Both the position numbers and the translations under genes were made by a program. From Fulvia fulva (Eukaryota; Ascomycota; Dothideomycetes; Mycosphaerellales; Mycosphaerellaceae): a DNA stretch of 64,000 bases. Location of the stretch: the NCBI RefSeq assembly GCF_020509005.1, contig NC_063023.1, positions 372,001 through 436,000 of the forward strand, read 5' to 3'. This document shows, in pieces, positions 28,518 through 60,636 of this stretch; position 1 is the first letter of the stretch; the number at the start of each line of letters is the position of its first letter. The notes under the pieces were generated by a model, which had not been told where the DNA came from, did not search any database, and saw only the letters and a list, made by a program, of their open reading frames with translations.

Positions 28518-28526
28518 CCTTGTTCA
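28518..28526. repeat. Left 9 bp target-site duplication of pogo A
   Basis: CCTTGTTCA directly outside the left inverted repeat; the same nine bases follow the right inverted repeat at 60628-60636. Confidence 0.75.
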
Positions 28527-28569
28527 CCCAGTGTCTAGGGACAGTGCCCTCGGACAGTGCCCTCCGGCT
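28527..28569 (+). repeat. Left terminal inverted repeat of pogo A
   Basis: Starts CCCAGTGTCTAGGGACAGTG and ends CCTCCGGCT. It contains a 13 bp direct repeat in tandem (GGACAGTGCCCTC twice), a possible transposase-binding site pair. Confidence 0.85.
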
Positions 28570-28678
28570 GAGAGAATTATATAAGCAAATTTCACCTAAC
28601 GTGCTTCACCACCGAGCGGGCCACACCACCGAGCGGGCCACTTTTGCCAAGAACTGTACCACTTCCACAGATATAGCT

Positions 28679-30480
28679 ATGCAACCACCATTACAGCGTG
28701 TATTGTCTTCAAACGAGGCCAAACTGACCTTAGCTGTCCAGGCCACGAAACGCGACGCGACAATCACGAATCGACTTGCTACAAAGGTATACGACGCGTC
28801 TCGAACTACACTAGGGTATCGATTGAATGGACGACCTCCTCGGGTTGACTGCGAGCCCAATTCGAAGAAGCTTACAGAGCTAGAAGAGAGGGTGATACTT
28901 GAGTACATACTCGAGCTGGATCTTAGAGGTTTCCCGCCATCAAAGGCTAGTGTACGAGCAATGGCCGATTCATTGCTACAAGAGAAGGGTCTCAAGCCCG
29001 CTGGTCTCAATTGGACAGACAGGTTCATTAGGCGGCATCGTGAGCTAAAGGTTCGCATAACACGTAGATACGATCGTCAGCGAGCCCTAATAGAAGATCT
29101 AGACGTTATCGAGAGGTGGTTCTTGCTTATACGTAATATAAAGGAGAAGTATAGTATCCTTAACTAGGACACCTATAACTTCGACTAGACAGGGTTTATA
29201 ATAGGTATTATTACGTCTTAGAGCGTCGTCGCGGGTTTAGAAAGGCGTAGTAGAAAGAGGAAGGTCGTTTAATAGGGTAATAGAGAATAGGTAATAGTAA
29301 TTAAGACTATCTATATAGACGGAATAGCGCTCCTACCCTACGTTATTCTTATAGGCAAACAGTACATTAGTACCTAGTACTAAGACGGTAACTTGGGTCT
29401 AGACTAGATAATCGGGCTAATAGAGAACGGCTAGACTAATAATAAGTTTGGTATACGGTAGCTAGAGTATTTCTAGAAGTATACTATAGCTCGTACGACT
29501 AGGGTATAGAGACTGCTTATTATCAATAGCTACGAGAGCTATAACTCGAAGGTATTCTAGAATCTATATAAGGAATAGAAGATCTCAGCTCTATATATAC
29601 TATCGTATGCCTCGTACTTACTCTAGCTATTAGATATAGGTTGCTATTTACCTTTAAAGAAGGTATACGGTACTTAGCTCTCGGGCTTAGTACGCTAGCG
29701 TATTACTTATATCGATAAAGTAGAGTTCCTACGCGCCTTCCGGGTAGGCTATAACGCTATATTTAGATAGGAGAACATCCTATCGAGCTTTAGAGGCGCT
29801 AGTTTAGTTCTATTTAATCTATAGGTAGTAATAGACAAGCTTAATATTAAGCTATATACGCTAACCCCTCTAGCTCCGGACTCTACCCCTTAGAAGTCGA
29901 AGATACTACGAACTATAAAAGAATTCGACTCTTAATCGATACTAGTAACGAACAAAATGCGTGCCCGGGTAGGTTTATCGCTAAACTCGTTATAGAATAG
30001 GGTATATTAGATTATAAAAGGGAGTAGAGAGATAGCGTATTAGATAGCTCTTATACAAAGCAAGATTAGTAAGCTACGTAAGTCTAACGAGGCCCTTATA
30101 TAGTAGAAAGTACGAAAGCGTAAGTACATTTAGTCTAGAGGGTCTCTAACCTTCGATAAGGCGTCGTAATTAATATCTCTAGAGGATACTAGGAGGTAGG
30201 AGTAAGTAGAGAGTCGCTAGATAGTGTTCGGCTAGTACTAAGGCTACGACGCTATAAGCGATATAGCGAGTCGGGGCATAACGTACGTACCTATTTAGTA
30301 GACTTACTAGATAGCGAAGAATCTAAAGAGGAATTGTCCTCCTAGTAACGATTCTATAGAATGTCGTCGTATTAAGATCCCGTCGTAATTAAAGTAGAAG
30401 TAGTATAGTTCTTAGTAAAAGTAGCCCGCTTGGTAGTATAGCCTACTTAGGAGTAAAGTACGTTATATATAAGGGCGTCT
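28679..30480 (+). pseudogene. Fot1/pogo transposase A (DDE type), RIP-inactivated in its C-terminal two-thirds
   Basis: The ATG at 28679 opens a frame with a psq/CENP-B-type helix-turn-helix region: LGYRLNGRPPRVD, LTELEERVILEYI and LNWTDRFIRRHREL. It is intact to a TAG at 29165-29167. The frame then continues through many TAG/TAA codons over the DDE catalytic domain: NFDxTGF near 29177 (first Asp), LLIINSYESY near 29510 where family members have a second catalytic Asp but Asn is read here, and LLxLLDIGCYLPLKK near 29620. The end is approximate. The N-terminal 490 bases have normal CA/TG content, and the mutation load rises abruptly at about 29.13 kb. Cut-and-paste transposase; this copy cannot encode a working enzyme. 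Confidence 0.85.
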
Positions 30481-31497
30481 AATCTTACGGCGGCGAGAAT
30501 TTTAAGGTATTACGACTATATTGTTACGAGACAGCCCTTTTACTTACTTTACGTACTACTCCGCGACATATCGACGTTATCGGCCGTAACTCCGCGCGCT
30601 AGCGGCCGCTAGCGCCCGCTAGCGCCCTTCCGATTTCTTTATCTATTCGCCTTCCCTTAGACCTCTTAGATAGCTCGCGTAACTATATATGTCTTTACCT
30701 AACTATACTATAGCCCCCTTACCCGTAATATATATCTAGTAGTATTAGACTATTACTAGCTTTTTAAGTCGGATTTTAAGGAGGAGCTATAGTACTAGCT
30801 CTCCTCCGACTACGCGTAGTAATACGGCTACTATAAATATCTATATAAAAATTTAATACCGGATTTAGATTTACTATATTAAGTTACTCTAATTAGGAAA
30901 TAAAAACGGTATACTCGTTATTTTAACCTAGATCCGGTTAGGATATTATATTTCCGGCTTTAGTAGTATTATCCTTATAGCTATTTAACTACTAGCTCTA
31001 TAACTACTCCGCTACTTAGGACTTAGCTATAACGTATTAAGTATTAGGAACCGCTATACGTTATTACAACTAGGCTTAGATCTTTATAGAGATGTCTCGA
31101 CTCGTTATAAAGGTAGTAATTCTAAATAGTATATAGTATATACTTAAAATAAGTCGAGCACGAGGCTCCTATCTACTTATAAAAGAGCGCCGTCTATATA
31201 GTACTATATCTTAGTATAGCTAATTAGACTAATTACTAAGTAGACTGGTTAAACTAATCACTAAGCTAATTGGTTTAGGTACGGTCGTCCTAATTAGTCT
31301 CGGTTCCTCCGGTAAAATAAGTAGCTATAGTCTTTTAAAATCTCGGACCGTAATACTATCTCCTCTTTAGCTTAGTTCCGTCCCAGAACTAGAACGCTAG
31401 TATAAACACCTAGTATACTCGGCTTCCGTATTAAACCGCGACGTTTTAAATAAAATAGTATATTAGGTAGTAATAAAGCGCTTATATATAGTAATAT
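30481..31497. other. RIP-saturated DNA of unknown origin
   Basis: About 1 kb between the transposase A gene and the 3' end of the minus-strand LINE. CA and TG are rare, CG and TA frequent. It includes a GC-rich patch with GCTAGCGGCCGCTAGCGCCC near 30598 and a possible LTR-like start TGTTACGAGACAG at 30522. Translation in six frames by eye gave nothing I recognise. Confidence 0.4.
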
Positions 31498-31570
31498 AGA
31501 TAGATAGATATTTTATTAAGCTATTATAGTACCCTTTAGTCTATATAGGCAAGCATTTTAGTATATATAT

Positions 31571-31805
31571 TGTTAAACAGGTACGGGTGGATAGTAGCGG
31601 AGTGGAGTAAGAGATCAATCTTTAACTGACTAATAGCACGAGCATGCAGCAATATATTAGGAACCAATATGTTGATTGTGTTGGATGTCTATCTAAGCTA
31701 AAGGGGAGAGAAGGTATCTCCCTACAAGCTGAGTCATCGTAGATGCCTCAGGCTGCCAGATCACTTCCTGATTGTTGACTCCCTTTGAGATGCTACATCT
31801 TAACA
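31571..31805 (-). repeat. 3' LTR of copia E1
   Basis: 235 bp, starts TGTTAAACAGG on the plus strand and ends ATCTTAACA. The bases just inside (31806-31820) read on the minus strand as GAGATGAGTGGGAG, the expected polypurine tract. Confidence 0.9.
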
Positions 31806-31870
31806 CTCCCACTCATCTCGTATAGGAGGTTACAGTCTGCTCACTTCCTGTCAATAGTACTTGGACCTTT

Positions 31871-34800
31871 TTATGACAGGTTCAGCTGGCTTACAAACCT
31901 CTGGAAGTGTGGACCAGTCTTTGGTTTTGTAAACCCGTCTGCAACCATCTCAGAGGTTGGGGTGTACTCAACAGCAATAAGCCTCCTCCACCAAAGTTTC
32001 CTAACAGCGTTATAGGCAATGTCAATGTGCTTCGACTTGTCATGAACATGTGCATCTTTCACTAGGGTGAGGGCAGCTTGATTGTCACCTCTTAATTGGA
32101 CTGGTCTCAAATTTGATACAGTCTCCTGGTTTCCAGTGATTCTTGGTTGATGGGAACAGTCTCCCACTAACTCTGGACAATCCATTTCCCTCAGCAGTGA
32201 AGCTAGGAATTGGGACTGCTTCGCACATGCATTCATAGCCATGTATTCAGCCTCCATTGTGGATGTTGCTACAGACTTTTGCTTCTTGCTCATCCAAGAA
32301 ACTGGTGCCCTACAGAGGAAGAAGACATACCCAAGGATTGAGACTCTGTCTGCTTTGTCCATTGCATAATCAGAATCACAGTATCTAATAAGGTGTCCTT
32401 TTCCAGACTTTGAGAACTGAAGTCCTAGATCAGGGTATGATCTTAGGTACCTAGTGATCTTCTTCAAAGCCTTCATGTGGTAGGTGGATGGGTCACTCAC
32501 AAATAAGCTCATCCTTCCTAGGGCAAAAGCAATGTCTGGCCTTGTGATTGTTGCTGGCCACATCCAAGTACTATTGATACTCTGGTACTCTGCCTTGTCA
32601 CACCTCTCATCTATGTGGCTTGAAGGTTTGAGGGCCTCATAGCTGTCCGTAGGTGAGTGTGTAGGTGCTGCCTTCTTATAGTTCATTCCTATCTTGGCTA
32701 GGCTGTCCCTAACAAAGTGTCCTTAGTCAAGTTTCAGGATTCCTCTCTTCCTGTCCCTTGTGACTCTCATGCCAAGGATCTTTTTAGGTTCACCTAGATC
32801 TTTGATCTTGAAGATCTTGCTAAGTTCTCTTTTGAACCAGAGAACATCTGTCAACTTTGGTGCAGCAATTGGAATGTCATCCACATGTATAAGGATTATG
32901 ATCTCCCTCTTCTTATAGATAAGTAGGCATGGATCCACTTCTGACTGTGTGAATCCAATCTCTCTGAGCTTTGACACACAGAGTTGATTCCAATCTCTAG
33001 CTGCTTGCTTAAGTCCATACAAGCTTTTGAGGATTTTGAACACCATGTTTGGTGGAAGCTCAACTCCTGGTGGTGGTAACATGAAGATGTCTTCATGGAG
33101 GGTGCTTTCTGTGAATGCATTGTTCACATCCACTTGGTGAAGATGAAGATCCTTCTTACACACAATAGCCATAAACACCCTAAGGGTGTCCTGTCTTACT
33201 GTAGGTGCAAATGTCTCCATAAAGTCAACACCAAACTTCTGTGAGAAGCCCCTTGCAACTAGTCTAGCCTTGAACTTTTCAATAGCTCCACTAATGCTTC
33301 TCTTAATATCAAAGACCCATCTTGATGTAACCAGATTTGCTCCTTTTGGTGGAACAGAATTTTCCTAGGTGTTGTTACTCTGTAGAGCATCTAGTTCCTT
33401 TTGGATTGCTTCCTTCCAAAGATGTCCCCATTTCTTATCATTCACAGCATCCTTGTAGGATTTTGGAATTGGGACCTCTTGCTTGTATGCAATAGCTTCT
33501 ACAGTTGCTGCAAAGGCCATTTCCTCAACTTCTTCCAGGAATTCGCTATCCCATGATATTGAACTGTCCACTGATTGCATGGCTGCAAAGAAAGCTTGGT
33601 GAAAAGCAGCAAGGTTCTCTAAGAGGTCCATTGCTTCTCCCACTTCAGTGGTTAGTTCGGGCTTAGGGACCATGGATTTTGGGGCTTTCTGTTTCATGTC
33701 ATAGCCCTCAACATCATAGTCAGCCTTTCTCTTTCCAAGGGATGATTTAGGGATCGTCACTTGTGACCTAGTAACGTCTATTTCCTGGGGATCTAGGGAG
33801 CTTCTCTCAATTGGCTGATCGATTTTCTGAAATTCCCCTACGTTCTCCGGAGGCTGGGGAAGTTGCACAAACAGCTTTCTCGGCTGAGCGACTTTAGGGC
33901 TCTCAATTGGCTGATCTATTTCGGGGGGGCTCTGATGGACGCCTGAATGGTGGGTAGATTGTCCTAAGGATACGTTCTTCCTCGGCCTTCCTAAGGGCTT
34001 CCTAGCTGGTGCACTGCTTGGTAGATTCAATGTTGGAACATTGAGACCCATATCACCTCCAGGCTGGTCCTCAAAGAAGTCTGCATGTGTGTGTTGTTTA
34101 ACAGCTCTCATGTCTGGTTCCCAAAAGAGCCAGGCTTTAGCTGTGTTTTCAACATACCCAATAAACACTGCTTCTTTACCCCTATTCATTAGCTTGTCAC
34201 TTCTTGCCCATTGAGGTTGGGATCTTGTGTCCATATAGACAACAGCTTTGCATCCCCAAACTTTCAAATGGTTGATGGTCGGTTTGATACCATCAAAAGC
34301 CTCATCTGGTGAAACCTTGAACCCATCGTAATCTGGGCCATTTGGCAGTTTGTTCCTCATATAAGTTTGGGCCTCTAGTGCTTCAGGCCAAAATTCAACC
34401 GGCATTTTAGCCTCTTCAAGCATTGCCCTTATAGAGTCCTCTGAGGTTTGTATTGACCTCTCAACTGGTCCATTCTGTAGAGAGTTGTATGCCTCAGTCG
34501 GCTCGAGCCCAATCCCCAAATCCTTCTCCCACTGCTTCACTGCTTCACTAATGCAATAAGTTCTTTTGCATTGTCAAGTCTTACTGCTTTCAGCTGCGCT
34601 GATGATTTCCTCTCTGCTTTGATCTTCCAGTTCTGGAGAGCAACTGGAGCATCTTCTCTTTTCCTAAGAGGAAAGGTCCACTTCTTCCTAGAGAAGTTGT
34701 CAACAATCTCAAGCCAGTATTTGAATCCTAGTCTTGAGATTGGTAGTGGGCCACATATGTCAATAGATACAAGGGCAAGTCTTTCAGGTCTTCTCTCTGT

Positions 34801-35334
34801 AACTTTGCCTTTATACTTCTTCATCTTTGCTATTGAGCATACTCTGCACTGGTGAAAGCCATCCTTAGGGATAGGAATGGGTTCTTTCAAGTCTGTTACC
34901 TTGTGAAGATTCTGGAGCAAATTCCTCCCAAAGTGTGCAAATCTTCTATGCCAAAGCTCCCACTGCTTCAGGTCGGTCTCTGATTGAGCAGTCACAAAGG
35001 CATTCTCCATTGGTGGTGCATATGATGAGTAATGTGCCCGTTCTTGTAGGAGAGGAGAAATCTCATCAATGAATGGAACCCCCCCAAGGAGCTTTGTCTG
35101 GACAACAGTCTCACCAGAGGGGGAAACAAGAGAAAATGATGGAGGTTGCACACCAAACTGCTTGCTAAACTGGTTCCATGAAACCAGGTTCACTCCTAGC
35201 TTGGGTACAAGCAGGACATCTTCCAAAACAACTTTTCTGCCAGCTCTCCCACTCATCTCTGCATTCCCAATATGAGTGGCCAATAAAAACCCACCTCCCA
35301 CTTTGATCCATTTCTTCCTTGTCAAGGGAGTCAT
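31871..35334 (-). pseudogene. copia E1 pol: integrase, reverse transcriptase, RNase H (protease active site deleted)
   Basis: In element order: a post-protease segment from ATG 35334; the integrase zinc-binding region with HRRFAHFG and CRVCSIAK; the integrase core with SIDICGP, RLDNAKE and the Glu in PVERSIQTSED; the copia RT with FMETFAPTVRQ, QVDVNNAF and IHVDD as the catalytic box; and RNase H with STMEAEYMAM, ending FVSQLNLS. The copia E2 element at 58930-58990 has LLDSCASSHMT, the aspartic protease motif, just before the matching position; E1 lacks this segment. Further lesions: an 8 bp duplication (ACTGCTTC twice, 34531-34546) shifting frame inside the integrase core, TAG for Trp at 33365 and TAA for Gln at 32723. 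RT catalytic box is HVDD, not YVDD. Confidence 0.88.
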
Positions 35335-36434
35335 AGATCTTGGACTTCTGCAGTTGAGTGAGCCACTTCATCATACTCATCATCATCAGACATTGTCTCT
35401 GGGGATGAGCTGCATGGTGACTCTTGGGCGGAGAAACCTTTTCCAGTCTTCTTTGCTTTAGAGGTATAAGACTGGGCCTGGTTCTTCTGGAGTGACAGCA
35501 TGTCAGAGCTGAGTTTCTTCACCATTTTCTTAAGTTCTTCCATAGAGGACTTCTCTCTTGGTGTCCTCCTTGAAGTGGGTGGTGGAGTTCTCTTCTTCTT
35601 GACATGTGTTGTATTCTGGGAAGATGGTGGTTGGGAATGAGATCTAAGGACCTTTCTTGCCTCAGGCAAACTAGGGCAGTCCTTGATCAGATGATCCTTC
35701 TCACAGAGAAGGCAGGAGATTGGTCTTGCTAGACCTGAGGGCTTGACCCAGGTGGCTGCCATGCCATACTCAGCCTTAGAGGGATCCAACCTGGCTTCTT
35801 GAGCTTCAAGGATCTTTAAGGTCCTTTCATGATCCATCTTTGGCTGAGCCATGATAGTATCCCTGGCTACATGGTAGTCAGGTGGCAGTGAGCTTAAGAG
35901 CTGGGTCATCCTCACATCAGCTTTCCTGTAATGCTGACCCTCTGGGTCAACATCAGCAATCCTTTTTCCAAGAGAAACTAGGTGTGTCCATGCAGATCTG
36001 ATGGTGAACTCTTCACTCATCTCAAAGGTCACAAATTGCTTTGTGAGCTCATGTGCATGGGTTGGTAGCACCTGGCTATACTTGTTCTAGAGATACACCC
36101 ACTTCTCAGCAGCTCTTCCAGATTCACATGAGCCCTCAAGCTCAAATTCATCTTCTTCTGTGATCCTACTAAGGATACTGAAGTTGCATACTGCATTGTG
36201 CCTTGTCCATGTTGGCGTATTGAGGATCTCTTTGGTTGTAGCCTCTTCTTGGAGTTTCAGAGTCTTGCCCTTGATGTTGTCAAAAGACACTTCCATTAGG
36301 TCATCAATTGCAAAGAATGCTGATTGGCTCTCCATCTTGTATCTCTGAAGGTTGAACCATCTCTTCCAATTGTCCCTCCCAAGAATTGGGATTTTGCCTC
36401 CCTTCTCCTCTGTCTTCTCTTGGTATGAATCCAT
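35331..36434 (-). pseudogene. copia E1 gag with zinc knuckle
   Basis: From ATG 36434 (MDSYQEKTEEKGGKIPILGR) the gag frame has a GRDNWKRWF block, one internal TAG at about 36084 (a Gln codon by context) and a zinc knuckle CLLCEKDHLIKDC near 35690. It ends EVQDL at 35331 where it overlaps the next ATG by four bases. The overlap is a by-product of the deletion rather than a designed gag-pol junction, judged from the E2 copy. Capsid-like role in particle formation. Confidence 0.85.
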
Positions 36435-36870
36435 AATAAATTGGATGTAATGAAACAAGGTGTGTATGTTCCAAGGTGGTGGCTCAGATCCTGCTGAGGC
36501 TTCTGGTGTAGAATGGGAAAGTTCGTAGGTGTGGATACCAAGGCCTGCTTGGTAAAGTAAAGAAGGAGCGGTGTGAGGTCTCGGGGCTAGGACACAGGTC
36601 TGTCTCTCCTAGCAGAGCTTCAAATGACTTACTTGAAGTCCTTCTTGATAGTATCTCGATGCAGTTCTGCCTACAGAGTATCTTCAAGGTATTGGCTTTG
36701 AGTAAGCCGCACAGAGTCCTTGTCTGGGTTACCTATCACTTAGTATCGAACTAAGCTCCTTGATAGGATAGACGGGGTAGACTTCTGATTCCCAGATGTT
36801 TTCTGCTACGATAGCAAGGGATACAAGTAACCTGTACTGATATAGGTTGCTCTTATTCCTGCACAAACCC

Positions 36871-36882
36871 GGGCTCATAACC
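36871..36882 (-). promoter_or_regulatory. Primer-binding site of copia E1
   Basis: Directly inside the 5' LTR the plus strand reads GGGCTCATAACC, the anticodon arm of initiator tRNA-Met (anticodon CAT). This is the half-tRNA priming known from Drosophila copia. The second copia element has the same site with one RIP-type change at 60108-60119. Confidence 0.8.
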
Positions 36883-37117
36883 TGTTGAACAGGTACGGGT
36901 GGATGGCAGCGGAGTGGAGTAAGAGATCAATCTTCAACTGACTAATAGCACGAGCATGCAGCAATATATCAGGAACCAATATGTTGATTGTGTTGGATGT
37001 CTATCTAAGCTAAAGGGGAGAGAAGGTATCTCCCTACAAGCTGAGTCATTGTGGATGCCTCAGGCTGCCAGATCACTTCCTGATTGTTGACTCCCTTTGA
37101 GATGCTACATCTTAACA
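36883..37117 (-). repeat. 5' LTR of copia E1
   Basis: 235 bp, plus-strand start TGTTGAACAGG and end ATCTTAACA; same length as the 31571 copy, differing by transitions only. Confidence 0.9.
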
Positions 37118-40100
37118 GATACGATAGATATAAGAGGAGAGGAGAGTACTCCGGAGCGTACTCTAGGAGGGGGGGGGTAGTATTACCGTACCGGCGTATA
37201 TTTACTTAAACCCGTAGGTACGTACCTAGACCCCGTGCCCGCTAACTAATCCGACTAGCGGCTTAGCGCCCGTATATAACTCTCGCGCCCTCCGCGCCTC
37301 TCTTAGATAGAATATCTATTCGACTTATACCTTACCCGACTACGTACTTATACCTACTTATAATAACTCGGAACTTTACTATCGGGGTTTATTACGTATC
37401 TAGCTACCGCTAGGCCTATAATCCTATCTTCTTTTTAGGCGCTATAGATCGAAGGCGTGTCGTAATCGCCTAGTACGCCGCGCGATATTACTCCCTACCT
37501 TACTATTCGCCGTCTAGAGCGTATAGCCTATAGCGAGCTATTAGAGGTAAAGGTCTAGTAGCGCGATCTACGTATCTACTTCTAGGACCTACGTCGGTAT
37601 AGTACGGTATACCCTAGTCGCCCTACGTAAATATTCGTTCTATACGTTTTAAATCTACTTTATCTAGCTAGTCGGGTAGGAAAGATACTAGACTAGTACC
37701 CTAAAGGTAATCGCCGGTCGGACGATAGAGCTATATAGCTAGCGTATCTTTACGAAGGCTAGGCCCTATATAGAGGCCGCGAGGCGTATAACTAAGGCTT
37801 TATTCTAGTCTCCCCGCTACCGGAGCTACTTTAGGTAGGCGTACTACCGGAGTTACGTATCTACTTAGAATTATAGGACCCGGATAGATAGCTATAGAGT
37901 AATCTAGCTTACGCCGGTCCCGGCCTCGATCGTAGCTTAGAGGTTATACTTCTTCGGGGTCCTCGTAAGGTAGATTATCTAGTACTTCTTAGGTACGAAG
38001 ACTACCCTATATCGCGCTACCTAGTCGTTATATACCTCGAGCGCCGCTTCGAGTTAGCGGTAATTAGTCTCGGTTAAGTCGCTATATATTAGGAGATTTA
38101 TATCGTCGATAAAGCCTATATAGGAGTTAGTACTACCGACGCTTCCTCTAAGTAGCGGGAGGAGCGTAGAGGCGAAGAAAAGGAAGAGAATCGGAGAGAG
38201 TAATAAGCCCTACGGGATCTCCGTTTCTATAGGCCGTATCTAAGGTTTACGCTACTCCTTTAGGACGAGCTACGTAGACCGGTTACTAAGGAAGGACTTA
38301 ATAAACGTAACGAGCTAGCTAGTTAGACCTTTCGCCCGGAGGTTATAGAGTAGTTAGGCGTAGGATACCTTATCGAACGCCCCCGAGATATCGAGGGATA
38401 GTAGAGTAGCGACCTGTTATCGGCGTATTACCTAGACTATATAAACCTATTCCGTAACGAGTTCTAGGGCGGTCGTCGTAGACCGCCCTAGTCGGGCTCC
38501 TATCTACTCGGCTAGGAGGAGCTAGTACTCCTCGGCTAGCTTAGAGATATAATCGGCTACGATACGCTCTAGCGCCTTACCGATCGTACTAAGTAGGGCT
38601 ATCGGGCGGTAGGCCTTCCTAACGTCGTATCTAGCCTTACCCTCCTTATAGAGAACGACTATACTCGAGTACCGGAAGAGGGTTAGTACTTATAACTACT
38701 AGAGGTATACCGTAAATAGCCCCGCGAGGTACGGGGCGAGCGTCTAGCGGTAGTACTTAAGGAATTAGTTAGGGATCTTATCTAGTCCTAGGGACTTATC
38801 TAGTAGCGCCGCTTTTAGTACTATTAGTACCTCCGCCTCCGTTACTTCTTAGCTAGTCTCGAGCTCCGTTAGGTATACGAAGCCTTCGATATTATCGAGT
38901 CGGGTAGTAACCGGAGGAGGGAAGAACGCCTCTACTAGCGCGTCGGCGCTACCTTACTAGGCTTCCTAGAGGACCCCTTATCTATTACGGATAGGTAGGA
39001 ACTATAGTAGTAGTAGCGGCGTCTCCGGCTTCCTCGTACGCGTCTATTTAGCGAGCTTCTAGACCTTACTTCGGTCTCCTATATTTTTACGAACGGCGTT
39101 ACGCTACGTAATATTACCCTAGCGCCTAATAATCTTACCCTTCTCGTTATCTAGTCGGCGGTATTAGGCGTATATAGCGTCCTATTTTATCTCGTTCTAC
39201 CGGCGCCGCGCCGCTACCGTTATACGGACTACGTCTACGTATTTCTACGACTAGGCTAGCGACGCGTACTTCGAGGGTCGGGTATAGGGGATCTTATCCT
39301 AGATTACTCCTACTATATACTACTATAGGCTCCCTACCGCCGCGTTAATTTCCGCCTCTAAGCGGAGGGGTACCGGCGGTACGAGGGCCGTTATTTATTC
39401 TTTTAGTACTTTATTAATCTCCTTCTAGTCCGCTATCTTCTACTAAGGCCGTAGTTCTAGGGCTAGTAGCGCCTATAGGTATATTACGTTAAACGTCGTA
39501 CGGATAGCTAGGTAGTCTAGATAGCCGGTATCGAGTTCTAGGTCCGTATTATAGAAGATAGTCCGCTAGGCTATCTACTATATCTAGAAGGTTAGACTAA
39601 GCGTCTAGGTCGTATTTTTCTACTAATACGTAGCCGTACCTACGGGAAGTACTAGACTAAGGCCGGATACCTCTACTAGACCGATAAGCGCGTCTACGGC
39701 GCGATAGGCCGAGAGTACGCTATCGCCTCCCTATCTTAGGTAGTAGAGGTTAAGATCGCCGACTAGGATATATATATTAGCTTCCTCTTAGAGAGCTTCT
39801 TAGAGCTAGTAGAGGGTAGCCGACTAGCTATTATCTTCTATCGAGTCCGGTACTAAGTACGGATTATAGGCGTTATAGATAGCTACTATCTTACCGTCGG
39901 TAAGGCGTAGCCGTAGAGAGGCTATATCGCTAGAGTAGGTATAGGTTATCTACGTTATTATCGAGATTTCTTTACTTACGTAGAAGTAGACCCGCGCTAC
40001 CGGCTAGTTACCTTAGAGTACTATAAGGTAGTATCTCGGGTCTACGAGTATTATCTTTCCGTTTATCTACTACTCTTAGATAGCGACTATATAGTACCGG

Positions 40101-40777
40101 CTAGGGTATAGTAGGCTAAGGAGTAGCTTCTAGGCCTTATCCTTACTCTTATTAGCGTTATACTATACGATAGTTAGCTAGGTAAGCGTACTATTTATAG
40201 TTAGACTATTATATTAGCTATAGCTCCCTATTCTACCTCCGTAGGTTTACTACTATATTATCGTCCTTATCGCCCTCGCCCTCGCCTTCGCTATCCTATC
40301 GCGGGGCCGGCGTCGCTAGCGTAGCTACTAGTAAGGACGCGCTACCTCCGTAAGGGCGGAATATCCTCGTATCGAGGCGCGTCTATCTAAGGCCCTACGC
40401 CCGGGGGTCGGTAAGCGCTAGTCGGCCCGCTCCGTATATTAAGCGTCTATCGCTATTTAGCCGCCTCTTCTTACTCCTATATATAATCGGCTAGAAGCCG
40501 TCGGCGTCGACTCTTAGACGGTATAGTACTATCGCTATTCCTCCTCTTTCCTAGCGTATATCTAGGCGCGCTCCTACCGCCTATTCCGCTACCTACCTCT
40601 TTACTCTATATCCGCCTATCTACGCCTTATAGTCTCCGCCGTAGTTAGCGTACTTACTGTTATTAGGTTAGGGGTATTCGCGGGTATTATATACCTTCGC
40701 GTAGTAGCCGTAGTAGGTCACCTACCGATAATACTTTATAGTATACCCGAATCCCTAGTACCGGAAGTACTAGGTTA

Positions 40778-40792
40778 CTATATAGGTATAGT
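40778..40792. repeat. Target-site duplication, left copy, of the plus-strand LINE
   Basis: CTATATAGGTATAGT, repeated exactly at 45921-45935. Confidence 0.8.
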
Positions 40793-46093: not shown

Positions 46094-46098
46094 CCTAG
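46094..46098. repeat. Target-site duplication of the gypsy element (left)
   Basis: CCTAG, matched by CCTAG at 52389-52393 directly after the 3' LTR. Confidence 0.85.
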
Positions 46099-46618: not shown

Positions 46619-46639
46619 TCACAAAAGACCAACAAACCG

Positions 46640-47872: not shown

Positions 47873-47880
47873 AGAGAGGA

Positions 47881-50800: not shown

Positions 50801-51759
50801 CCTAGTTCATCTCGTACTTCTAGAAGCGTCTGTGTGCTATCCTAGGCATTAAGCATAACCTCTCGACCAGTTTTTAGCTACAGACCGACGGCTAGACCGA
50901 AATTACGAACGCTATCCTCGAGTAGGTCCTTCGTTACTTCGTCGACTACCACTAGAAGGATTGGCCTTAGCATATCCCTACGGTGGAGTTCGCTACTCGT
51001 AACTAGGACTCGGAGACTACTAGCTACTCTCCCTTCTATACTACGAGAGGTTACCACCCTCGTATAGGCATAGAACTAGAAGAACCTCTCCCGCCTACCG
51101 AAGACGTAAACGAGCAAGTAGCAGACGAGTTCGCTACTATACTCTTATAGATCTATAAAGAAGTTCACGACGAGATAGTGTACGTATAAGCAATCTACGA
51201 GGATCAAGCCAATCGTCGTCGCTAGCTAGCTCCCGACTACTAAGTAGGCGATATAGTCTACCTTAACTCTAAGAACATCAAGACAGACCGCCCCTCTAAG
51301 AAGCTGAACTGGAAGAACCTAGGTCCTTTTAAGATCACCGAGCGTATCAGTTCACACGCCTACCGTCTAGCTCTTCCTACGAACATAAAGATCCACGACG
51401 TCTTCTATCCCGTACGCCTTCGGCCGTCGGCTAAGGACCCATTCCCGAACTGAAACCAAGACATGCTAGGTCCTCCCGATAAAGTAGAAGTCGACGAGCC
51501 TGTTAACCTACCTTCTAACGACTATGCCGTCCGTAAGATCCGGGGAATCCGCGTAGAGCCTAACGACGTTAAAGGACTACCGCCGATCAAGTATAAAGTC
51601 GAATGGCAAGGTTGCCCTAAGTAGGATACCTTATAGGAACCTATCTAACATATCATCTTCAATCGTCAAGCAATCGAAGAATACTACGCCCGCGCAGACG
51701 GCCTAGAAGTCAACATCGGCAGGCTCTTCGAATCTGAGCTCTTCGACGGGGCTTACTAA
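47881..51759 (+). pseudogene. gypsy pol: protease, RT, RNase H, integrase, chromodomain
   Basis: One frame holds throughout. Protease LMDTGA at 48007-48024; RT with [15 protein letters not shown] near 48730 and catalytic YIDD at 49075-49086; RNase H with ETDASDGVVG near 49520; integrase with RGHLG near 50405, TIDFITDLP near 50595, TSDRGT near 50790 and the following Glu; then a chromodomain near 51520-51700 (YAVRKIRGIRVE, KYKVEWQGC). The integrase zinc-binding cysteines near 50500 both read Tyr (NYATYRR). The chromodomain is the part that directs such elements to heterochromatin by reading methylated histone H3. Many TAG/TAA codons make this copy inactive. Confidence 0.9.
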
Positions 51760-51868
51760 TGGTGTATCGACTATAACATCAGGCCTAGGCCTAGTACTGA
51801 AGCTAAACATCCTCGATATATAGAACTACTACGGCTTCGTAGGAACTTAGCTTTGTTCGGGGGGCTAC

Positions 51869-52388
51869 TATCATGGTCTCCCTACAGAGTGTACAGAAGG
51901 TGGGGACAGAAGAGCCTTAGAGTGCTTAGAAGTCGTCAAGAAGTGACAGTCTAGCTTGGTGTATAAGCGCCAAGAATTATATACCCCGTAACATTCACTA
52001 CGGGACCTAGCCCTCCAAATTCACCCCTCTACTAAACCTTGACAGATTCACTTCGGCTCGTGACTATGTGACTCACGGCACTCCCGCGAGCACCCGCGAC
52101 TACGCTGGACCCTAGAAGAAGCACGTAGAAGACTCGGAACGTAGGGCAGGTTGGAATAAGGTTTTGAGCAAAGCTACTAAGCGCGGCTCCGCACGGGTTA
52201 GCCCTATTGATGCGGGGACACGCACTCGCGAGGGTCGCGTATAAATATCTGGCCTTCCCTAGGCCTCTCTTGCTTTCTTCGTCTTTTGTTTTGTGTAGCA
52301 ATCATACTATACCCTTTTGTATCTGCACTTCGCACCTACATTCTCGCTTTCACCCTTGCATCTCATAGGCTAGGCTCTCGCCCTGACA
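51869..52388 (+). repeat. 3' LTR of the gypsy element
   Basis: 520 bp, same length as the 5' LTR; preceded by a G-rich tract (TTCGGGGGGCTAC) that probably serves as polypurine tract. Confidence 0.93.
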
Positions 52389-53239
52389 CCTAGGATAGTA
52401 GCCTAGTTGTCCTTTACGATAGCCTCTCCTATCGCTACCGGGCTAGTATCTACTAGGAAGGTATTAACTCGGACACCGTATAGAAGGGCCTAGTATACTA
52501 GCGCGACCGGCGCTACGCTCTTCGCGTTTAGTACCTCGACCGCCTAGGCTACGCTCTATAGTAGCGTCGGTCTCCCCGCTATAGTTACGAGCGTATAGCG
52601 TACGTCTCTACTCTTTAGCTTCTAGGCTATAATTATGTCTTATTTACTAGCCTAGCGCGCCTACTCTACGAGGCGTTAGTACGATAGTACCGCTACCCGC
52701 TCTCTTTCTTTAGGGTTGTCTATATATATCGTAACCTCGCGCTAAACTAGCCTAACGCGGTACGTTAGTTACTCTACGGCTACTATAGCCGCTTAGGTAT
52801 ATATCGCCGGCCTAGCTCTTCCTAGCGCCTAGATCTCCTATAGGAGGTCCGCGTTCGTCACTTCCTTTACTAGCGCTAGCGCCTTCGTCGCCCGTAGTAG
52901 CTCCTAGATCGCTTTAGCTAAGCTCTCAAAGAGGCTACGGATCGCGCGTTCGTAGGGTAGATTAGCGCTCGCGAGGGTAGCTATAATTTCGTATATAATC
53001 GCGGTATATTCTACCGTATCTATACCGTGTTTCGTATACTAGTTCTTCTAGTTAGCAGCTTATAGTTATTATAGTCGTTATAGTAGATAGTCTTCGTGTT
53101 CCGTTTCTCCCGGGCGCGTCGTCGCTCCGCGCGTCCCCCTTTATTCGCCGCCCTTCGAGGGCGCTCTTTACTTTAGCGACGCTATCGCCCCTTCGTTTAT
53201 TATCGTATTTTGTTATCCTCGTCTTTAAGTCCTTCTTCG

Positions 53240-54300
53240 CCTTAGATATCCTCGTTACTATATTAGCAAAGTAATACTTTATCTAATATATAGCGTATAT
53301 AATTAGGATATCTATAACTTCGATAAGACGGACTTTTTAATAGACGTAATTAGCTCTATAAAAGTCGTTACTAGCTTAGAACGACGCTCTCGCCCTACGG
53401 CTATTTAGCCTAGTAGTAGAGAGTAGGTTATAGTTATTTAGAGTATCTATACTACTAGCTACTCGACCCCGCCCTTTATTATCTATAAAGGGCGCGTCTA
53501 CATTTTAGTATAGTATAAAGAGGTAGACATACCGCGGAATTAGAAGCTTACGGTCTCCGAGAATAGATAGACAAATAACGTACTTAGTCTCGAGTAGTTA
53601 AAGCACTTTAACGCGTATATAGAGGCGCGTTCTACGGGTAGCTATAGGTTGCTTATTTTAGACGGCTATAAGAGCTATTAAAACTAGGGTTTTAAAGACT
53701 ACTATCTAGACTATAAGATCCTTACGCTCTCTCTACCGGCGTATTCGTTGTATATCCTATAGCCTCTTAACGTAGTTTGTTTTATACCGTTAAAGCTAAA
53801 GTACTTATAACGCGTATAGGACTTAGCGCGTTAGCGCGTCTTCTATATTAATAAAGAAACCTTCCTTCCGGCGTTTAAAGACGCGTTTTTCGACGTATTT
53901 ACCGCGTTAAACTATAAGAAGGCCTTTAAGGCTATAGGGTTAGTTCCTATTAATACGTAAGTAGTACTAAATCGCCTTAATATACGCCTACGAACCCCGC
54001 TAGGACTATCTCCGCCTTAGACGACATTATAGTAGTCTTAAACTCCGAGTAATTCGAAGGAGTTTACGTTATAATCTAAGCTTATATACGACGCTATACT
54101 AAGCAACTCTAAAACAGCTTATAATAGCTTCTCTTAGCTTATAAAAGGCGGCGAAGTAATACTATAAGAGAATACGCTTCTTAGAGCTCGTAACTCTAGG
54201 CTTAAACAATAAGTTAAGACTCTTATAAAGCGCCGATCTTATAAATTAAAGCGTCTCTAGTACAGCGGGGTCTTAGAGTATAGAGTTAGCTTATTATAGG
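53240..54300 (+). pseudogene. Second Fot1/pogo transposase (transposase B), N-terminus not found, RIP-inactivated
   Basis: Read through TAG/TAA stops the plus strand gives the pogo catalytic domain: DIYNFDKTDFLID near 53310 (first Asp), LLILDGYKSY near 53650 (second Asp retained), and a PLNVVCFIPLKLKYL block near 53765 corresponding to the PLDVGxFxPLK motif. The C-terminal part runs to about 54.3 kb. It is similar to but distinct from transposase A. The N-terminal helix-turn-helix part should lie left of the LINE insertion, near or before 31.5 kb, but I cannot recognise it there. Boundaries are approximate. Confidence 0.75.
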
Positions 54301-54517
54301 TAGTCGTCGAGTTGTTAAAGGCTATAGAATAGTCAAAGAAGAGTCGTAGGTCAGAGGGTACGAAAGAGGGCTAGCTAAGTAGACGGCGGTATAGTAACTA
54401 CGGTTAGACTAGCTATAACGTACGAACGTACTAGGAATATAAAGAGAATAATTCTAAATCGGATAAGAGTATTAAGTTCACTAGTTCTCTCTTTAATAGT
54501 AGTGAAAACGATCAATA

Positions 54518-54872
54518 GATAGATAGATTTGTCATTCCCCTGTTCTAGGACCCTATCCGGCCTATATAGGTATATATCTATTGTTATATACAAAGGGAAA
54601 CCCGAATAGGTGAAAACCCTTCCCGCCCCCGACTACTCCTTATCTATGTTAGCTTTCCCTCTAAACGCGCGTAGTCTATGTTACTACCCCGTTAGCCCCC
54701 GCTCCTAGCCGGTCTCGTCGCGCTACGTCGTGTCCTCTCTTCCTATACTACTCCTACTAGGCGGTACTGTTCTAGCTAGCCCTTCTCTAGTATCTAGTTC
54801 GTAATGCGCCGTAGGTCCTTAGCGTTATTAAGAAGTGCCCTAATCGTCCGGTTCCTCGCCTTTACTATCTAC
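54518..54872 (-). mobile_element. LINE 3'-end stub, 355 bp
   Basis: A severely 5'-truncated LINE insertion. It is flanked by GAAAACGATYAATA (54504-54517 and 54873-54886, one C/T difference). It starts with a GATAGATAGAT tail like the other LINEs and shares the GTGAAAACCC region found at about 75-95 of the window in LINE copy 1. Confidence 0.75.
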
Positions 54873-54917
54873 GAAAACGATTAATAAAGAATATAAGTTA
54901 GCCGTACTAAGACAAAA

Positions 54918-54968
54918 TTCCTAGCTTACTAGTGTTCCTAGCTTACTAGTATTCCTAGCTTACTAGTA
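54918..54968. repeat. Three tandem copies of a 17 bp unit
   Basis: Unit TTCCTAGCTTACTAGTR, at 54918-54934, 54935-54951 and 54952-54968. Lies between the LINE stub and copia E2; possibly a subterminal repeat of the second pogo element. Confidence 0.85.
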
Positions 54969-55134
54969 CTTTACGTTAGTATTACTAAGCTACTTAGAAA
55001 AGAATTTAAGTTTAGGAGGGCTTAGTATAAAATAAAGTAGTAAGATTTCTAAATACTAGTAAAGGAAAGCTTTAGTAAAGCTTTAGCTTTATAACCTTAA
55101 TATTAATACGATAATATACCGCTATATAGATATA

Positions 55135-55473
55135 TATTAAACAGGTATAGTATGTGTGTGCACGGAAGTCAGGACACGTAATAGGGAAGGAGGAAGGACC
55201 AATATAGTATACGAAGGTATATAGTAGAACAGTATTTAGTACTAAAGGTGTCTCTACTATCGGTATAGAGACTACGTCTCTTATACCTACATAGAGGGAT
55301 ATTACTCTAGTCCTAGTTCTATTTCACTACGCCTTATCGGTTTCACCTATATCTTATCCTACGATTTGTACGGTGTTATAATAGTATTGCCGTACTATTA
55401 TCTCGACTAGCTTAGTATGTACTAAGTTAGTCTTAGTACCGTGCGATATGTCTACTAACCTATATTCGTAACA
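55135..55473 (-). repeat. 3' LTR of copia E2
   Basis: 339 bp, begins TATTAAACAGG and ends CGTAACA. Compared with the other LTR it carries more C-to-T and G-to-A changes (for example GTAATAG for GTGACAG). Confidence 0.9.
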
Positions 55474-58400
55474 CTCCTACTTAGGTCGTAAGGCAAGGAA
55501 CGATTGTTCCTACTATACTAGCTATAGCTATCGTACGAAGCCCTAGAACTAGGGACCGGCTAGCGGCTTGGTCAAACCGTCTACTACTATCTCCTTAGTA
55601 TAGTAGTACTCTACTTTAATCTTCCTCTGCTACTAGAGGTGCCTAATGTAGTTATAGGCAACATTAATATGCTTAGATCTTTCGTAGATATAGGCGTCCT
55701 TAACTAAGGTTAGAGCCGCCTAGTTATCCCTATAAGGCGTACTAGTCTCAGTTCGTCGACGGTGCTCTTATTAGCTAGGACTGTTAGTTAGAAAGAGCAG
55801 TCTCCTACTAGCCCCGGGTAGTTCATCTCTCGGAGGATAGCCGCTAGGAACTAGCATTGTTTTACGGCGGCGTTTATCGCTATAAACTCTGCCTCTATAG
55901 TAGAGGTTGCTATAGACTTTTGCTTCTTACTTATCTAGGATATAGGCGTACCGTATACTAGCTAGACATGTCCTAGAATCAAGACCCTGTCTACTCGATC
56001 TATCGCGTAGTCGGAGTCTAAGTATCCGGTTAGGGTACCGCTACTACGTCTAAATATTAACCCTAGGTCGGGGAACGACCTTAGGTATCTCGAGACCTTC
56101 TTTAGTACTTTTATATACCGCTTTGTTAGATCCGCGACATATGTGCTAGTTCTCCCGAGTAGGCAGGCTAGGTCCGGTCTCGTTATAGTCATTAGCTATA
56201 TCTAGGTCCTATTGTCGCTCTAGTAGTCATCCTTACTACATCTCTCGTCGTTTAGGGCTATAGGACGGAGATTATCGTAACTATCTATTAGCGAGAGTGT
56301 TAGGCTTGCCTTTTCTTTTACTATATCTATTTTAGTAAGGGCCTTACGGATGTAATAGCCCTAGTCGAGTTTTAGGGTACCGTTACGCCTATCGCGAGTG
56401 ATCTTCAGTCCTAGCAGTTTCTCCGGTTCCCCGAGGTCCTTAATCTTGAAGTGTTACGCAAACTGCTTCTTGAACTATTAGATGTCGGCCAACCTTAGTA
56501 CTATAATAGGTTTATCGTCTATATAGATAAGTAGTATAATGTCTCTCTTAGTATAAGTCAGGAGACATAGGTCTACCTCGGACTAGTAGAATCCCATTTT
56601 GACTAACGTAGCGACACAGAGCTTATTCTAGTCTCTAGCTACCTACTTTAGGCCGTAGAGACTCCGGAGTACCTTAAGGACCGTGTTCGGTAGGGTTTCG
56701 ACTCCTAGTAGGGGTTTTATATAGATATCTTCGGCTAGGTAGCTTTTAGTAAACGCATTGTTAACGTCGACCTAGTACATCTCGAGATCCCGCCCGCAAA
56801 CTACTGCTATAAAGACCCTTAGGGTGTTATAGCGTACTATAGATACGAATGTCTCTTCGAAGTCAACGCCGAATTTCTATAAAAACCCTCTAGCGACAAG
56901 TCTTGCCTTGAACTTTTCGATTACTCCGCTAACAAGTCTCTTTACGTTAAAGACCTACTTAGAGGTGACTATATTCGCCCCCCTTAGAGCGATAGCCGTT
57001 TCCTAGGTGTTGTTACTTAATAACGAGAGTAGCTCGGCATCGATAGCGTCCTTCTATAAGTGGCCCTATTTAGGATCCCCTACCGTAGCCTTATATGTCT
57101 TCGGGATAGGTACTTCCTATTAGTAGGCGATACCGGGTCCGAATGTAGTAAAGGCGTGTTCTTAGACTTCGTCGAACAGTTCCTCTACCATAGCTATAAA
57201 CATACGTTCGTCGGCATTAGTAAGTCTATTATTCACCTAGGGCAGTTAGTAGAACAAAGCTATTATAGCTTTGTAGTGCTTAGCCTTATAGTCCTAGTCC
57301 TAGCCGTAGTTATCGTTAGGATCCCTAGTCCTTTTCCTCCGGACGATTAGTTCCGGTAGCTCCGGGGTTTCCTCGATCTTCTTATAGTCCGCGATATTAT
57401 CTAGTCTACTAGGAAGTTGGATATAGAGTGGTCTCAAGACAGTTAGTCCTTTATCCTTAGCCGTAGCGGGTTCGGTCTCTTCTATAGAGGAGTCACTCTC
57501 GTTAGGCCTAGGTATTATACTACCCGAGGATCGTGAGATTGCTATCGGGGTATCCGCTAGTCGCTATAGTAGTGGTCGCGAGACCGCCGGTAGTCGACCG
57601 ACTGGCCTTCGTTCGGGTGCCTTACTAGGTTAGTTCGTAAAGGAGACACCTAAATCTAGATCTCCCCCCTTCTCGTTTTCGAACTAATCTACTTAGCTAT
57701 ACTGCCTAATAGCTCGTATATCTGGCTCCTAGAACAACTATTACTTAGTCGATTGACCGTATCTAACGAAAATAGCTTCCTTACCCTAGTTTATTAACTT
57801 ATCCTATCGTAGCCCTTTTAGATATAATTTCGGTTCTACGTAAACCACTGCCCTACAACCCTATACTCTTAGGTGATCTACCGTCAGTACTTTGCTAGTA
57901 AATGCTTCTTCCGGTAAAAGTTAGACACCGTTAAGTAACGGTCCGTTTAGTAGTAGGTTACGTATAACCGCCTATACCTCTAGCGCTTTAGGCTAGAATT
58001 CCACCGGCATCCCCGATTCTTCGAGCATTACGCGGATCGCGTTCTCCGATACCTAGATTGACCTTTCTACTACTCCGTTTTGTATAGAGTTATAAGCATC
58101 CGTCGTATCGTATTGAACCCCCGATTCTTTCTCCTGTCTTTTAGAACTATTAGTAGCTTAGGTACATTGTTACTCCGTACTACTCTTACGGAGCATTTCG
58201 ATACTTTCTCTATAGTTAGCCGCTATTGTCGTAGTGCTTGCGGTGCGTCGGATCTGTTCTTAAGCGGGATCACCTACTTCTTTCTTAAGAAGTTATCTAC
58301 GATCTTTAGCTAGTATTTGAAACCTAGCCTAGATATCGCATTTTCGAAGGGTCCGTAGATGTCGATAGATATAAGCGCAAGTCTTTCGTTCTTTCGTTCT

Positions 58401-60119
58401 ACGATAGCGCCTTTGAACTTTCGTATGTTCGCGATAGAGCATACCTTATAGTTATGCTCGTCCGGGATAGGGATCGGGTCCTTCTTATTACTTACCCTAT
58501 AGACGTTCCGGAGCAACCCTTTTCCTAGGTATGCGAATCCTCTATACTAAAGCTCCTACTGATCCTCGGTAGTTACCGCGGCTAGAGCTTCCTCGTGTAG
58601 CACCTCCGGTAGTCTGTTATCTACCTAGTTTAGGGAGTCGGATATCGAAGATACTACCGGCACCCCCCCTCGTAGTATTGTTCGTACGACAGGCTTTCCG
58701 CTCTTATACTTAAGTATGAAGTTTAGAGGTTCGATATCGAATTGCTTACTAAACTGCCTCTATAAAACTAGATTAACTCCGAGATTAGGAACAAACAAGA
58801 CTTTCTCTAGCGCAATTTGTTTCCCCGTTAGGCCTCCTATAGTTACTGTTCCTTTATAGAATACATCTAGGTACCCCCTACCGACTTTGATCACTTTCCT
58901 TCTCGCTAGTTTCCTAAGCGATCTGAATAGAGACTTATTGTTAGTCATGTGTGAGGAGGCACAGGAGTCTAGTAGCTATTCGGAGGCGGGAAACTTGCCT
59001 TTTGCTTCGGTGGTAGAATGGGCGACTTCGTCGTCGTATATTTCCTCGGCATCGCTCTCTCGTAAGGCATAGGCTCGTATCGCCTTTGCCTTTGTCTTGT
59101 TGTCGGATTGGCTTCTCCTATCCTTCTGCTGTTTCTTAGACTTCTTAAGGGCGTGTTAGGCCTTCTCTAGATCCCGGACCAGCTCTTCGTAGGACTTCTT
59201 TTCCGGTTGCTTCTAGGTGTTCTTCTTTTTGACAAACTCCTTTGCGGAATCTAGTTCCGGGCACGATGTAACCAGGTAGTTACTATCGTAGATGAAGCAG
59301 CCGCTCTTGCCCCCTTGCCTCTAGGAGTATAGAGCGGTCTCGCCCTTACTCTCTTAGATCCGTAATTCGTAGGATTCAAGCAAGGTCATAGCGGATTCCT
59401 AGCCTAGGTTTGGCTAGGCTAGGATAGTGTCCCTAGTGCTAGCGTAGACGTCCGGGAGGCTGCTTAGTAGGTGCTTGAACCTTCGGATAGGGTCCTTATA
59501 GTGGGTCTCTTTGCTGTCTGTTTCGGCAATCTGTATAGATAGGTTACCTAGATATGTCCACCCTTGTCTAATTGTCTAATCGTCCGGCAGCTCAAACGAC
59601 ACTAGCTGTTTTATAAGCGCTACTACGTATGCCTTATAGACCTTGCTATACTTCTTCTACAGAAGTTTCTAGATTTCTTTCGCATCTCGTATGTCCAAGA
59701 TTTCTTAGTTGTCCTCCTCGGACAAATATACTAAGATAGTATATCTCGCTATACCGTTCGCCTTCGAAGTGATCTTAGGCGTAACGGATTCTAGGAGATC
59801 AGCCGACGAGTCGTCGATGACCTAGAATACCTCCCGGCTTTCGAGATAGTCTCGTAGTGTAACGAACTAGCGCTTCCAGTTCTTACGAGTAAGGGTAGGG
59901 CCGATCTTCCGGGGGCCCTCGTAACTCGTTAAGTCTTCTATAGCGAAGGTAGCCTTAGATGTGTAGCAAGCTCTACTTGACTACGGTGGTTAGAATAAAC
60001 TTAGACTCCCCGAGTCTATTAGTACGTCACCGTGCGGATTCCGGGTGTAGGGTACAGTACCCTACGTCGTACTTCCTTAATATATCGATGTCCTGTTGAG
60101 CAAACTCGGGCTTATAACC

Positions 60120-60458
60120 TATTAAACAGGTATAGTATGTGTGTGCACGGAAGTCAGGACACGTGACAGGGAAGGAGGAAGGACCAATGTGGTATACGAA
60201 GGTACACAGTAGAACAGTGTTTAGTACTAAAGGTGTCTCTACTATCGGTGTAGAGACTGCGTCTCTTATACCTACACAGAGGGATATTGCTCCAGTCCTA
60301 GTTCTATTTCACCACGCCTTATCGGTTTCACCTATGTCTCGTCCTGCGATTCGTGCGGTGTCATAATAGTATTGCCGTACTATTGTCTCGACTAGCTTAG
60401 TATGTACCAAGTCAGTCTTAGTACCGTGCGACATGCCTACTGACCTGTATTCGCAACA
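60120..60458 (-). repeat. 5' LTR of copia E2
   Basis: 339 bp, begins TATTAAACAGG and ends CGCAACA; the less mutated LTR of the pair. Confidence 0.9.
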
Positions 60459-60584
60459 ATATAGAGATAATTATTTCTATATTGTATATACCTATCTAGA
60501 AGTGCCCAAAGATCTAGTATTAGTTAAGCGTGTAGTTGAATTAATACAACACCTCGAAGAAGCTCGTCCGCATTGGGCTTCAAT
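60459..60584 (+). mobile_element. Right internal end of pogo A
   Basis: 126 bases between the copia E2 target duplication and the right inverted repeat. Ordinary CA/TG content, no coding seen. Confidence 0.6.
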
Positions 60585-60627
60585 AGCCGGAGGGCACTGT
60601 CCGAGGGCACTGCCCGCAGACACTGGG
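60585..60627 (-). repeat. Right terminal inverted repeat of pogo A
   Basis: Begins AGCCGGAGGGCACTGTCCGA and ends GACACTGGG; reverse complement matches 28527-28569 at 40 of 43 positions. Confidence 0.85.
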
Positions 60628-60636
60628 CCTTGTTCA
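60628..60636. repeat. Right 9 bp target-site duplication of pogo A
   Basis: CCTTGTTCA directly after the right inverted repeat, as at 28518-28526. Confidence 0.75.

What the first reader, a model, noticed from the sequence alone, without database searches (positions are those of the whole stretch)
28518..60636. A 32 kb transposon nest bounded by the ends of a single DNA transposon
Seen: 43 bp inverted repeats at 28527-28569 and 60585-60627, both flanked by CCTTGTTCA, with at least six later insertions between them. Four of these have their own target duplications or continue a host element's translation on both sides. This allows an order: pogo A, then the inner pogo and minus LINE, then plus LINE, then gypsy and copia elements. 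Inference: the apparent locus-long island is one insertion event grown by nesting.
Basis: partly seen in the sequence, partly recalled or inferred. Interest (0 to 1): 0.75.

Follow-up and report, generated by a model that had tools for sequence, protein, structure and literature searches.

The report
Transposon nest inside one small transposon
A 32-kilobase block of transposon debris in the tomato leaf-mould fungus is framed by the two ends of one DNA transposon, and a second copy of that transposon on another chromosome has swollen in the same way; this is ordinary repeat biology, but unusually well documented here.

Summary
The framing inverted repeats are real: 28527-28569 and 60585-60627, 40 of 43 bases paired, each bordered by CCTTGTTCA. 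The genome is Cladosporium fulvum (Fulvia fulva) Race 5, Chr12. The frame is not pogo: pogo-1 is a complete 1.87-kb element starting at 28599, 72 bp inside the frame, with its own TA ends. The frame belongs to another family with 9-bp target duplications (Mutator-like in form; transposase not found). About 767 of 32,101 bp are recognisable frame DNA. A second copy spans 37,106 bp on C10 between matching 9-bp duplications, and 18 of 50 matches to its joined flanks run across the junction: empty sites. Comparison with other copies shows nesting for pogo-1, pogo-2 (right end), outer copia, plus LINE and gypsy. Growth was not pure nesting: minus LINE and pogo-2 are truncated, LTR-A lacks a target duplication, about 87 bp of frame is missing beside pogo-1. 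The window's own empty site could not be tested (flanks single copy). Verdict: single founder supported, pogo identity wrong, order partly right.

The parts
28518..28526 (.). 9-bp target duplication CCTTGTTCA, left copy
28527..28598 (+). Frame transposon, left arm: 43-bp terminal inverted repeat plus 29 bp, the last two being the TA target of pogo-1; runs on without pogo in L031 and L057
28599..30463 (+). pogo-1, complete 1.87-kb pogo/Fot-type element, TA on both sides (28597-28598, 30464-30465); Tc5-type DNA-binding domain
   Evidence: full-length copies L038, L043, L046
30466..30526 (+). Frame, left arm continued (about 87 bp present in L031 are missing at the pogo-1 site)
30527..30732 (.). 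Short dispersed repeat absent at this site from L031 and L057; reads by eye as a solo LTR (TG start, TATAT on both sides)
30733..31041 (+). Frame, left arm continued
31042..31390 (.). Fragment of another repeat, probably an LTR: several genome matches come in pairs 2.0-2.2 kb apart
31390..31496 (.). Fragment resembling a terminal repeat of another DNA transposon (inverted pairs in L041 and L046)
31497..31570 (-). LINE 3'-end-like fragment
31571..37117 (-). LTR-A: copia element, 235-bp LTRs (7 differences), hardly RIP-mutated, no matching target duplication (TATAT / GATAC)
37118..37365 (.). Fragment Z (37126-37366 also in L038); origin unresolved
37366..40792 (-). Minus LINE, part 1; cut off at 37366, where copies L063 and L045 continue
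40793..45920 (+). Plus LINE with 15-bp target duplication CTATATAGGTATAGT (40778-40792 / 45921-45935); 39 other long matches begin at 40802-40831
45936..46098 (-). Minus LINE, part 2, ending in the gypsy target CCTAG
46099..52388 (+). LTR-C: gypsy element (domains named from copy L042), 5-bp duplication CCTAG (46094-46098 / 52389-52393)
52394..53210 (-). Minus LINE, part 3, with the family's 5' end (39 of 39 other scored matches end at 53203-53223; 40 of 168 candidates scored)
53211..53282 (.). Unassigned 72 bp
53283..54517 (+). pogo-2, part 1, lacking its left part
54518..54872 (-). 5'-truncated LINE with 14-bp duplication GAAAACGAT(C/T)AATA (54504-54517 / 54873-54886)
54873..54976 (+). pogo-2, part 2, right end followed by TA (54977-54978)
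54979..55134 (+). Frame, right arm; 83-88% identical to L032, L061 and L062, likeness falling to 46-54% inside pogo-2
55135..60458 (-). LTR-B: LTR element related to LTR-A (62% over 55526-57191; the one piece given to Pfam had no match), LTRs about 334-339 bp, flanked by ATATA; left boundary good to 2 bp
60459..60627 (+). Frame, right arm end with terminal inverted repeat 60585-60627
60628..60636 (.). 9-bp target duplication CCTTGTTCA, right copy

Best explanation
One cut-and-paste DNA transposon with 41-43 bp terminal inverted repeats inserted into single-copy DNA of what is now Chr12 and duplicated 9 bp (CCTTGTTCA). Its interior then received two pogo elements, two related LTR elements (one shown to be copia), two long LINEs, a gypsy element and several fragments, and parts were deleted. 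RIP mutated most of it, sparing the youngest copia and the outermost stretches. Shown: the frame and its duplication, pogo as a guest, copies of the left arm, right arm and minus LINE elsewhere without the window's guests, and a second nest from the same family with empty sites. Inferred: that all of 31042-54978 arrived after the founding insertion, and that the founder used a Mutator-type transposase.
For: Terminal repeats and 9-bp duplication. Left arm without pogo-1 in L031 and L057. Right arm without LTR-B in L032, L061 and L062; right arm without pogo-2 in L061 and L062, which agree with each other at 63 of 77 positions past the junction where the window falls to 50 of 93. The window's left end carries the left-arm type and its right end the right-arm type, in the same relative orientation as in C10. 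C10 copy: TGAGAGGAC on both sides of 3135691-3172796; 18 of 50 matches to the joined C10 flanks run across the junction, 40 of 56 candidates scored. The guests nearest the ends sit at different sites in the two nests. Minus LINE uninterrupted in L063. 9-bp duplications also in the short relatives L016 and L017.
Against: No empty site for the window itself: its joined flanks match only the two flanks (2 of 2). The middle is not a clean matryoshka: minus LINE cut at 37366, pogo-2 cut at 53283, LTR-A without target duplication, about 87 bp of frame missing at pogo-1. Of six family members whose two ends were read, four have a 9-bp duplication, L014 has 8 (9 if one repeat base is moved) and L019 has none. 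L032 also departs from L061 and L062 past the pogo-2 junction (28 of 76), so it does not help there. No complete unswollen copy with these arms was found, so the native length is unknown: 780 bp of left arm are shared by L031 and L057, about 0.4 kb of right arm by L061 and L062.
Confidence: 0.9

Rival explanations
1. One reading: the frame is the pogo element itself, split by later insertions.
For: pogo-1 lies next to the left frame end, and both have inverted repeats.
Against: None of the 41 other scored matches reaches the frame repeat; pogo-1 is complete at 1.87 kb with both of its own ends and TA flanks; the frame has a 9-bp duplication, whereas pogo-type elements duplicate TA (recalled; TA is seen at both pogo-1 ends here).
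Confidence: 0.02
2. The frame element is natively large and carries the other elements as cargo, moving as one 30-40 kb unit.
For: The two copies with these arms and two readable ends are 32 and 37 kb.
Against: The guests nearest the ends differ in position between the two nests, and other copies of the arms lack the window's guests. Plus LINE, gypsy, LTR-B and the short LINE have their own target duplications.
Confidence: 0.05
3. The locus is a chimera: recombination joined a left end and a right end that had inserted separately.
For: Internal joins at 37366 and 53283 and the missing duplication of LTR-A show rearrangement inside.
Against: The same 9 bp flank both ends, about 4 in a million by chance (4 to the minus 9, equal base frequencies), and both flanks are single copy.
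Confidence: 0.03

Closest known systems
Mutator-like elements (MULEs)
   Same: 9-bp target duplications; terminal inverted repeats of tens of bp; short relatives of roughly 350 bp with similar ends. Passages of PMC6446971 give 8-11 bp for MULEs, and 9 bp with 34-bp repeats for the Ascomycota group Phantom-Ca.
   Different: No transposase tied to the family: 21 PF10551 matches in the genome, none within 20 kb of a frame end that I had located.
pogo/Fot-type Tc1-mariner elements
   Same: pogo-1 is a guest of this kind: TA ends, Tc5-type DNA-binding domain. pogo-2 is related to it (61% over 53289-54021).
   Different: They are not the frame.
Nested insertions in MULEs of maize and rice (PMC3903597, abstract seen)
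   Same: Over a third of candidate coding MULEs hold nested insertions, in maize mostly LTR retrotransposons.
   Different: Plants; here the guests outweigh the recognisable host DNA about forty-fold.
Large RIP-affected regions of C. fulvum Race 5 (PMC9453070, passages seen)
   Same: 1532 such regions over 4 kb, averaging 16.7 kb, are reported; this nest looks like one of that sort.
   Different: The passages seen do not treat how single regions grew. 'nested', 'pogo' and 'MULE' do not occur in its main text nor in that of PMC10823647.

Membership tests
Mutator-like element (frame) | 8-11 bp target duplication | tested here: met
   9 bp in window, C10, L016, L017; 8 or 9 in L014; none in L019
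Mutator-like element (frame) | terminal inverted repeats | tested here: met
   43 bp, 93%; same or similar repeat in relatives
Mutator-like element (frame) | MULE transposase in an autonomous copy | tested here: inconclusive
   21 PF10551 matches (14 over cut-off), none near a located frame end; no autonomous copy identified
pogo/Fot element (pogo-1) | TA target duplication | tested here: met
   TA at 28597-28598 and 30464-30465
pogo/Fot element (pogo-1) | Tc5-type DNA-binding domain | tested here: met
   PF03221, E 3.5e-10
pogo/Fot element as the frame | family copies end at the frame repeats | tested here: not met
   0 of 41 other scored matches reach the frame repeat
Copia (LTR-A) | copia-type reverse transcriptase and LTR pair | tested here: met
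   RVT_2 E 1.4e-46; LTRs 97% identical
Gypsy (LTR-C) | gypsy-type integrase and reverse transcriptase | tested here: met
   SH3_Tf2-1 E 1.4e-18 and RVT_1 E 4.3e-12 in pieces of copy L042; the two window pieces of LTR-C tested had no match
Non-LTR LINE (plus and minus) | reverse transcriptase plus endonuclease | tested here: inconclusive
   RVT_1 E 1.7e-24 and 3.7e-27, over cut-off; endonuclease matches (0.00012 and 0.0011) below Pfam's cut-off; read with stops as residues

The most novel reading that the evidence does not exclude
Small DNA transposons that land in gene-rich DNA act as founders of the fungus's large RIP-affected regions: once one insertion exists, later elements land inside it rather than in the flanking single-copy DNA, so each region grows from one traceable founder whose ends stay readable because RIP spares the outermost bases.
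Probability: 0.25. Interest if true: 0.55.

Novelty: new member of a known kind. Interest (0 to 1): 0.35.

Why it matters
It is a worked example, ordered by nesting, of how a repeat-rich, RIP-mutated block forms in a crop pathogen with alternating gene-rich and repeat-rich regions: from one insertion whose ends and target duplication survive. If founders can be found for many such blocks, the origin of that checkerboard can be tested block by block.

Tried and rejected
Rejected: pogo as the frame. Rejected: 37366 as the true end of the minus LINE, because L063 and L045 continue together past it. Led nowhere: identification of the frame's transposase through PF10551. Nothing found: tRNAs or Rfam families at gathering score in the window. 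A possible third nest on C3 (3879661 to at least 3902094): right end and a 52-bp left-arm piece in matching orientation, left end not found. LTR differences were not used as a clock because they are RIP-type: transitions make up 7 of 7 in LTR-A, 28 of 28 in LTR-B, 27 of 28 in LTR-C. The idea that RIP stops at nest edges was looked at on 8 edges and 12 pogo copies. The pogo copies were chosen by likeness to an unmutated left end, so they cannot settle it; against a simple rule, L037 and L039b have mutated right ends beside less mutated flanks (0.17 against 0.62, 0.09 against 0.91), and at L062 the 150 bp outside the frame have index 0.16, so RIP reached the flank there. Paper searches: (nested transposon, RIP, fungal genome, target site duplication, insertion order; at least 4 of 5) listed no paper. 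In PMC12543289 the passages with 'edges' are about tree edges, not repeats.
Full report
Source. A flanking gene (window 14990-17794, minus) is 98% identical to a Fulvia fulva R3H-domain protein whose longest contig has 2,606,583 bases, the length of C12. C1 has 11,362,290 bases, the size given for Chr1 of C. fulvum Race 5 in PMC9453070 (passages). The window is therefore taken as Chr12:372001-436000 of that assembly.

Observation. Base composition falls from about 55% G+C in the flanks to 38-52% between them. [quoted passage not shown]

The frame is not pogo. A search with 28527-28700 gave 42 matches, the window itself and 41 others. All 41 start at query position 51 or later, 35 of them at 70 or 71 (40 of 521 candidates scored; recount). 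Full-length pogo copies match in one alignment each: L038 28597-30465, L043 28596-30472, L046 28577-30466. The L038 copy shows the same inverted repeats at both ends. Pogo-1 is thus a whole element inside the frame. The frame repeat is rare: 12 places with up to 3 mismatches, the window's two included, and none for the reversed control.

The frame family. L031 and L057 hold the left arm without pogo-1 and share about 780 bp at 83%. L032, L061 and L062 hold the right arm without LTR-B. At the pogo-2 junction the window is 83-88% identical to these three over the frame side and 46-54% inside pogo-2, while L061 and L062 go on agreeing with each other (63 of 77); L032 departs from them there (28 of 76) and is no witness. 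The window holds the left arm in three stretches (28527-28598, 30466-30526, 30733-31041) and the right arm in two (54979-55134, 60459-60627), 767 bp of 32,101. About 87 bp of left arm are missing at the pogo-1 site compared with L031 (alignment positions). Short relatives of roughly 350 bp with similar ends occur (L014, L016, L017, L019). Of the six members whose two ends were read, the window, C10, L016 and L017 have 9-base duplications, L014 has 8 or 9, L019 none. The form matches Mutator-like elements, 8-11 bp (PMC6446971, passages), but no transposase was tied to the family.

A second nest. In C10 the right arm begins at 3135691 and the left arm ends at 3172796, same relative orientation, with TGAGAGGAC outside both. 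The joined flanks have 50 matches in the genome; 18 of them run across the junction unbroken, at 75-88% identity (40 of 56 candidates scored; the C13 site is also seen). The element had landed in a member of a short dispersed repeat, and the other members act as its empty sites. For the window, the joined flanks match only themselves (2 of 2). Pogo copies lie near both C10 ends at sites different from the window's. About 11.6 of the 37.1 kb were read.

Inside the nest. L063 carries the minus LINE across both breaks: 37366-40792, 45921-46098 and 52389-53210 follow on from one another there. This places the plus LINE (15-bp duplication) and the gypsy LTR-C (CCTAG) as insertions in it. The short LINE in pogo-2 has a 14-bp duplication differing by one C/T change. 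LTR-B sits in the frame's right arm with ATATA on both sides, a weak duplication because the site is rich in A and T. Not explained by nesting: the cut of the minus LINE at 37366; the cut of pogo-2 at 53283 in comparison with L032 and L045, whose copies go further; 72 unassigned bases at 53211-53282; fragment Z; and LTR-A with unlike flanks TATAT and GATAC.

RIP pattern. LTR pairs start identical. LTR-B differs at 28 of 334 compared positions, all transitions, and in all 28 the inner LTR has A or T where the outer has G or C. Pogo-1 has 1 C-to-T or G-to-A change and 3 others in its first 442 compared positions against the majority of L038, L043 and L046, and 7 to 20 C-to-T or G-to-A changes per 150 in the bins after that. 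Across 8 frame edges the substrate index is 0.50-1.60 in the first 50 bp (5 to 10 counts each) and 0.00-0.57 at 300-450 bp in 7; the window's left edge stays at 1.14. At L062 the flank itself is mutated (0.16 in the outer 150 bp). RIP therefore tends to spare the rims, by different widths and not without exception, and the cause is open: short pairing length at the rim, chromatin, or gene conversion would fit. PMC10823647 notes that repeats under 400 bases often escape RIP (passage).

Verdict. A single-founder nest is well supported. The founder is a transposon of Mutator-like form with few readable copies, not pogo. This is a clear case of a known process.

Noticed in passing
28599-29150 versus 29150-30463: Pogo-1 is a mosaic: first about 450-550 bp almost free of RIP changes, the rest heavily mutated. 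Several 1.13-kb pogo derivatives elsewhere (L037, L039a, L040, L042, L044, L045) lean the same way, but they were picked by likeness to the unmutated end.
   Followed up: partly
L057, L061 (G000:C10:3135691-3172796): A second, 37-kb nest framed by the same transposon family, with 18 junction-spanning matches that act as empty sites.
   Followed up: yes
L062, L066 (G000:C3:3879661 to at least 3902094): Possible third nest: right end and a left-arm piece in matching orientation about 22 kb apart; left end not found.
   Followed up: partly
window 37118-37365 and L038 4935-5173: Fragment Z joins the truncated minus LINE here, and in L038 it follows a piece matching the plus LINE at 42591-42848: perhaps a chimeric LINE or a recombination joint.
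   Followed up: partly
window 1-3354: A stretch 66% identical, in inverse orientation, to the plus LINE (42588-45905) at the window's left edge: another repeat block.
   Followed up: no
window 61437-61885 and 62342-62807: A direct repeat of about 59% identity in the right flank, perhaps an old gene duplication.
   Followed up: no
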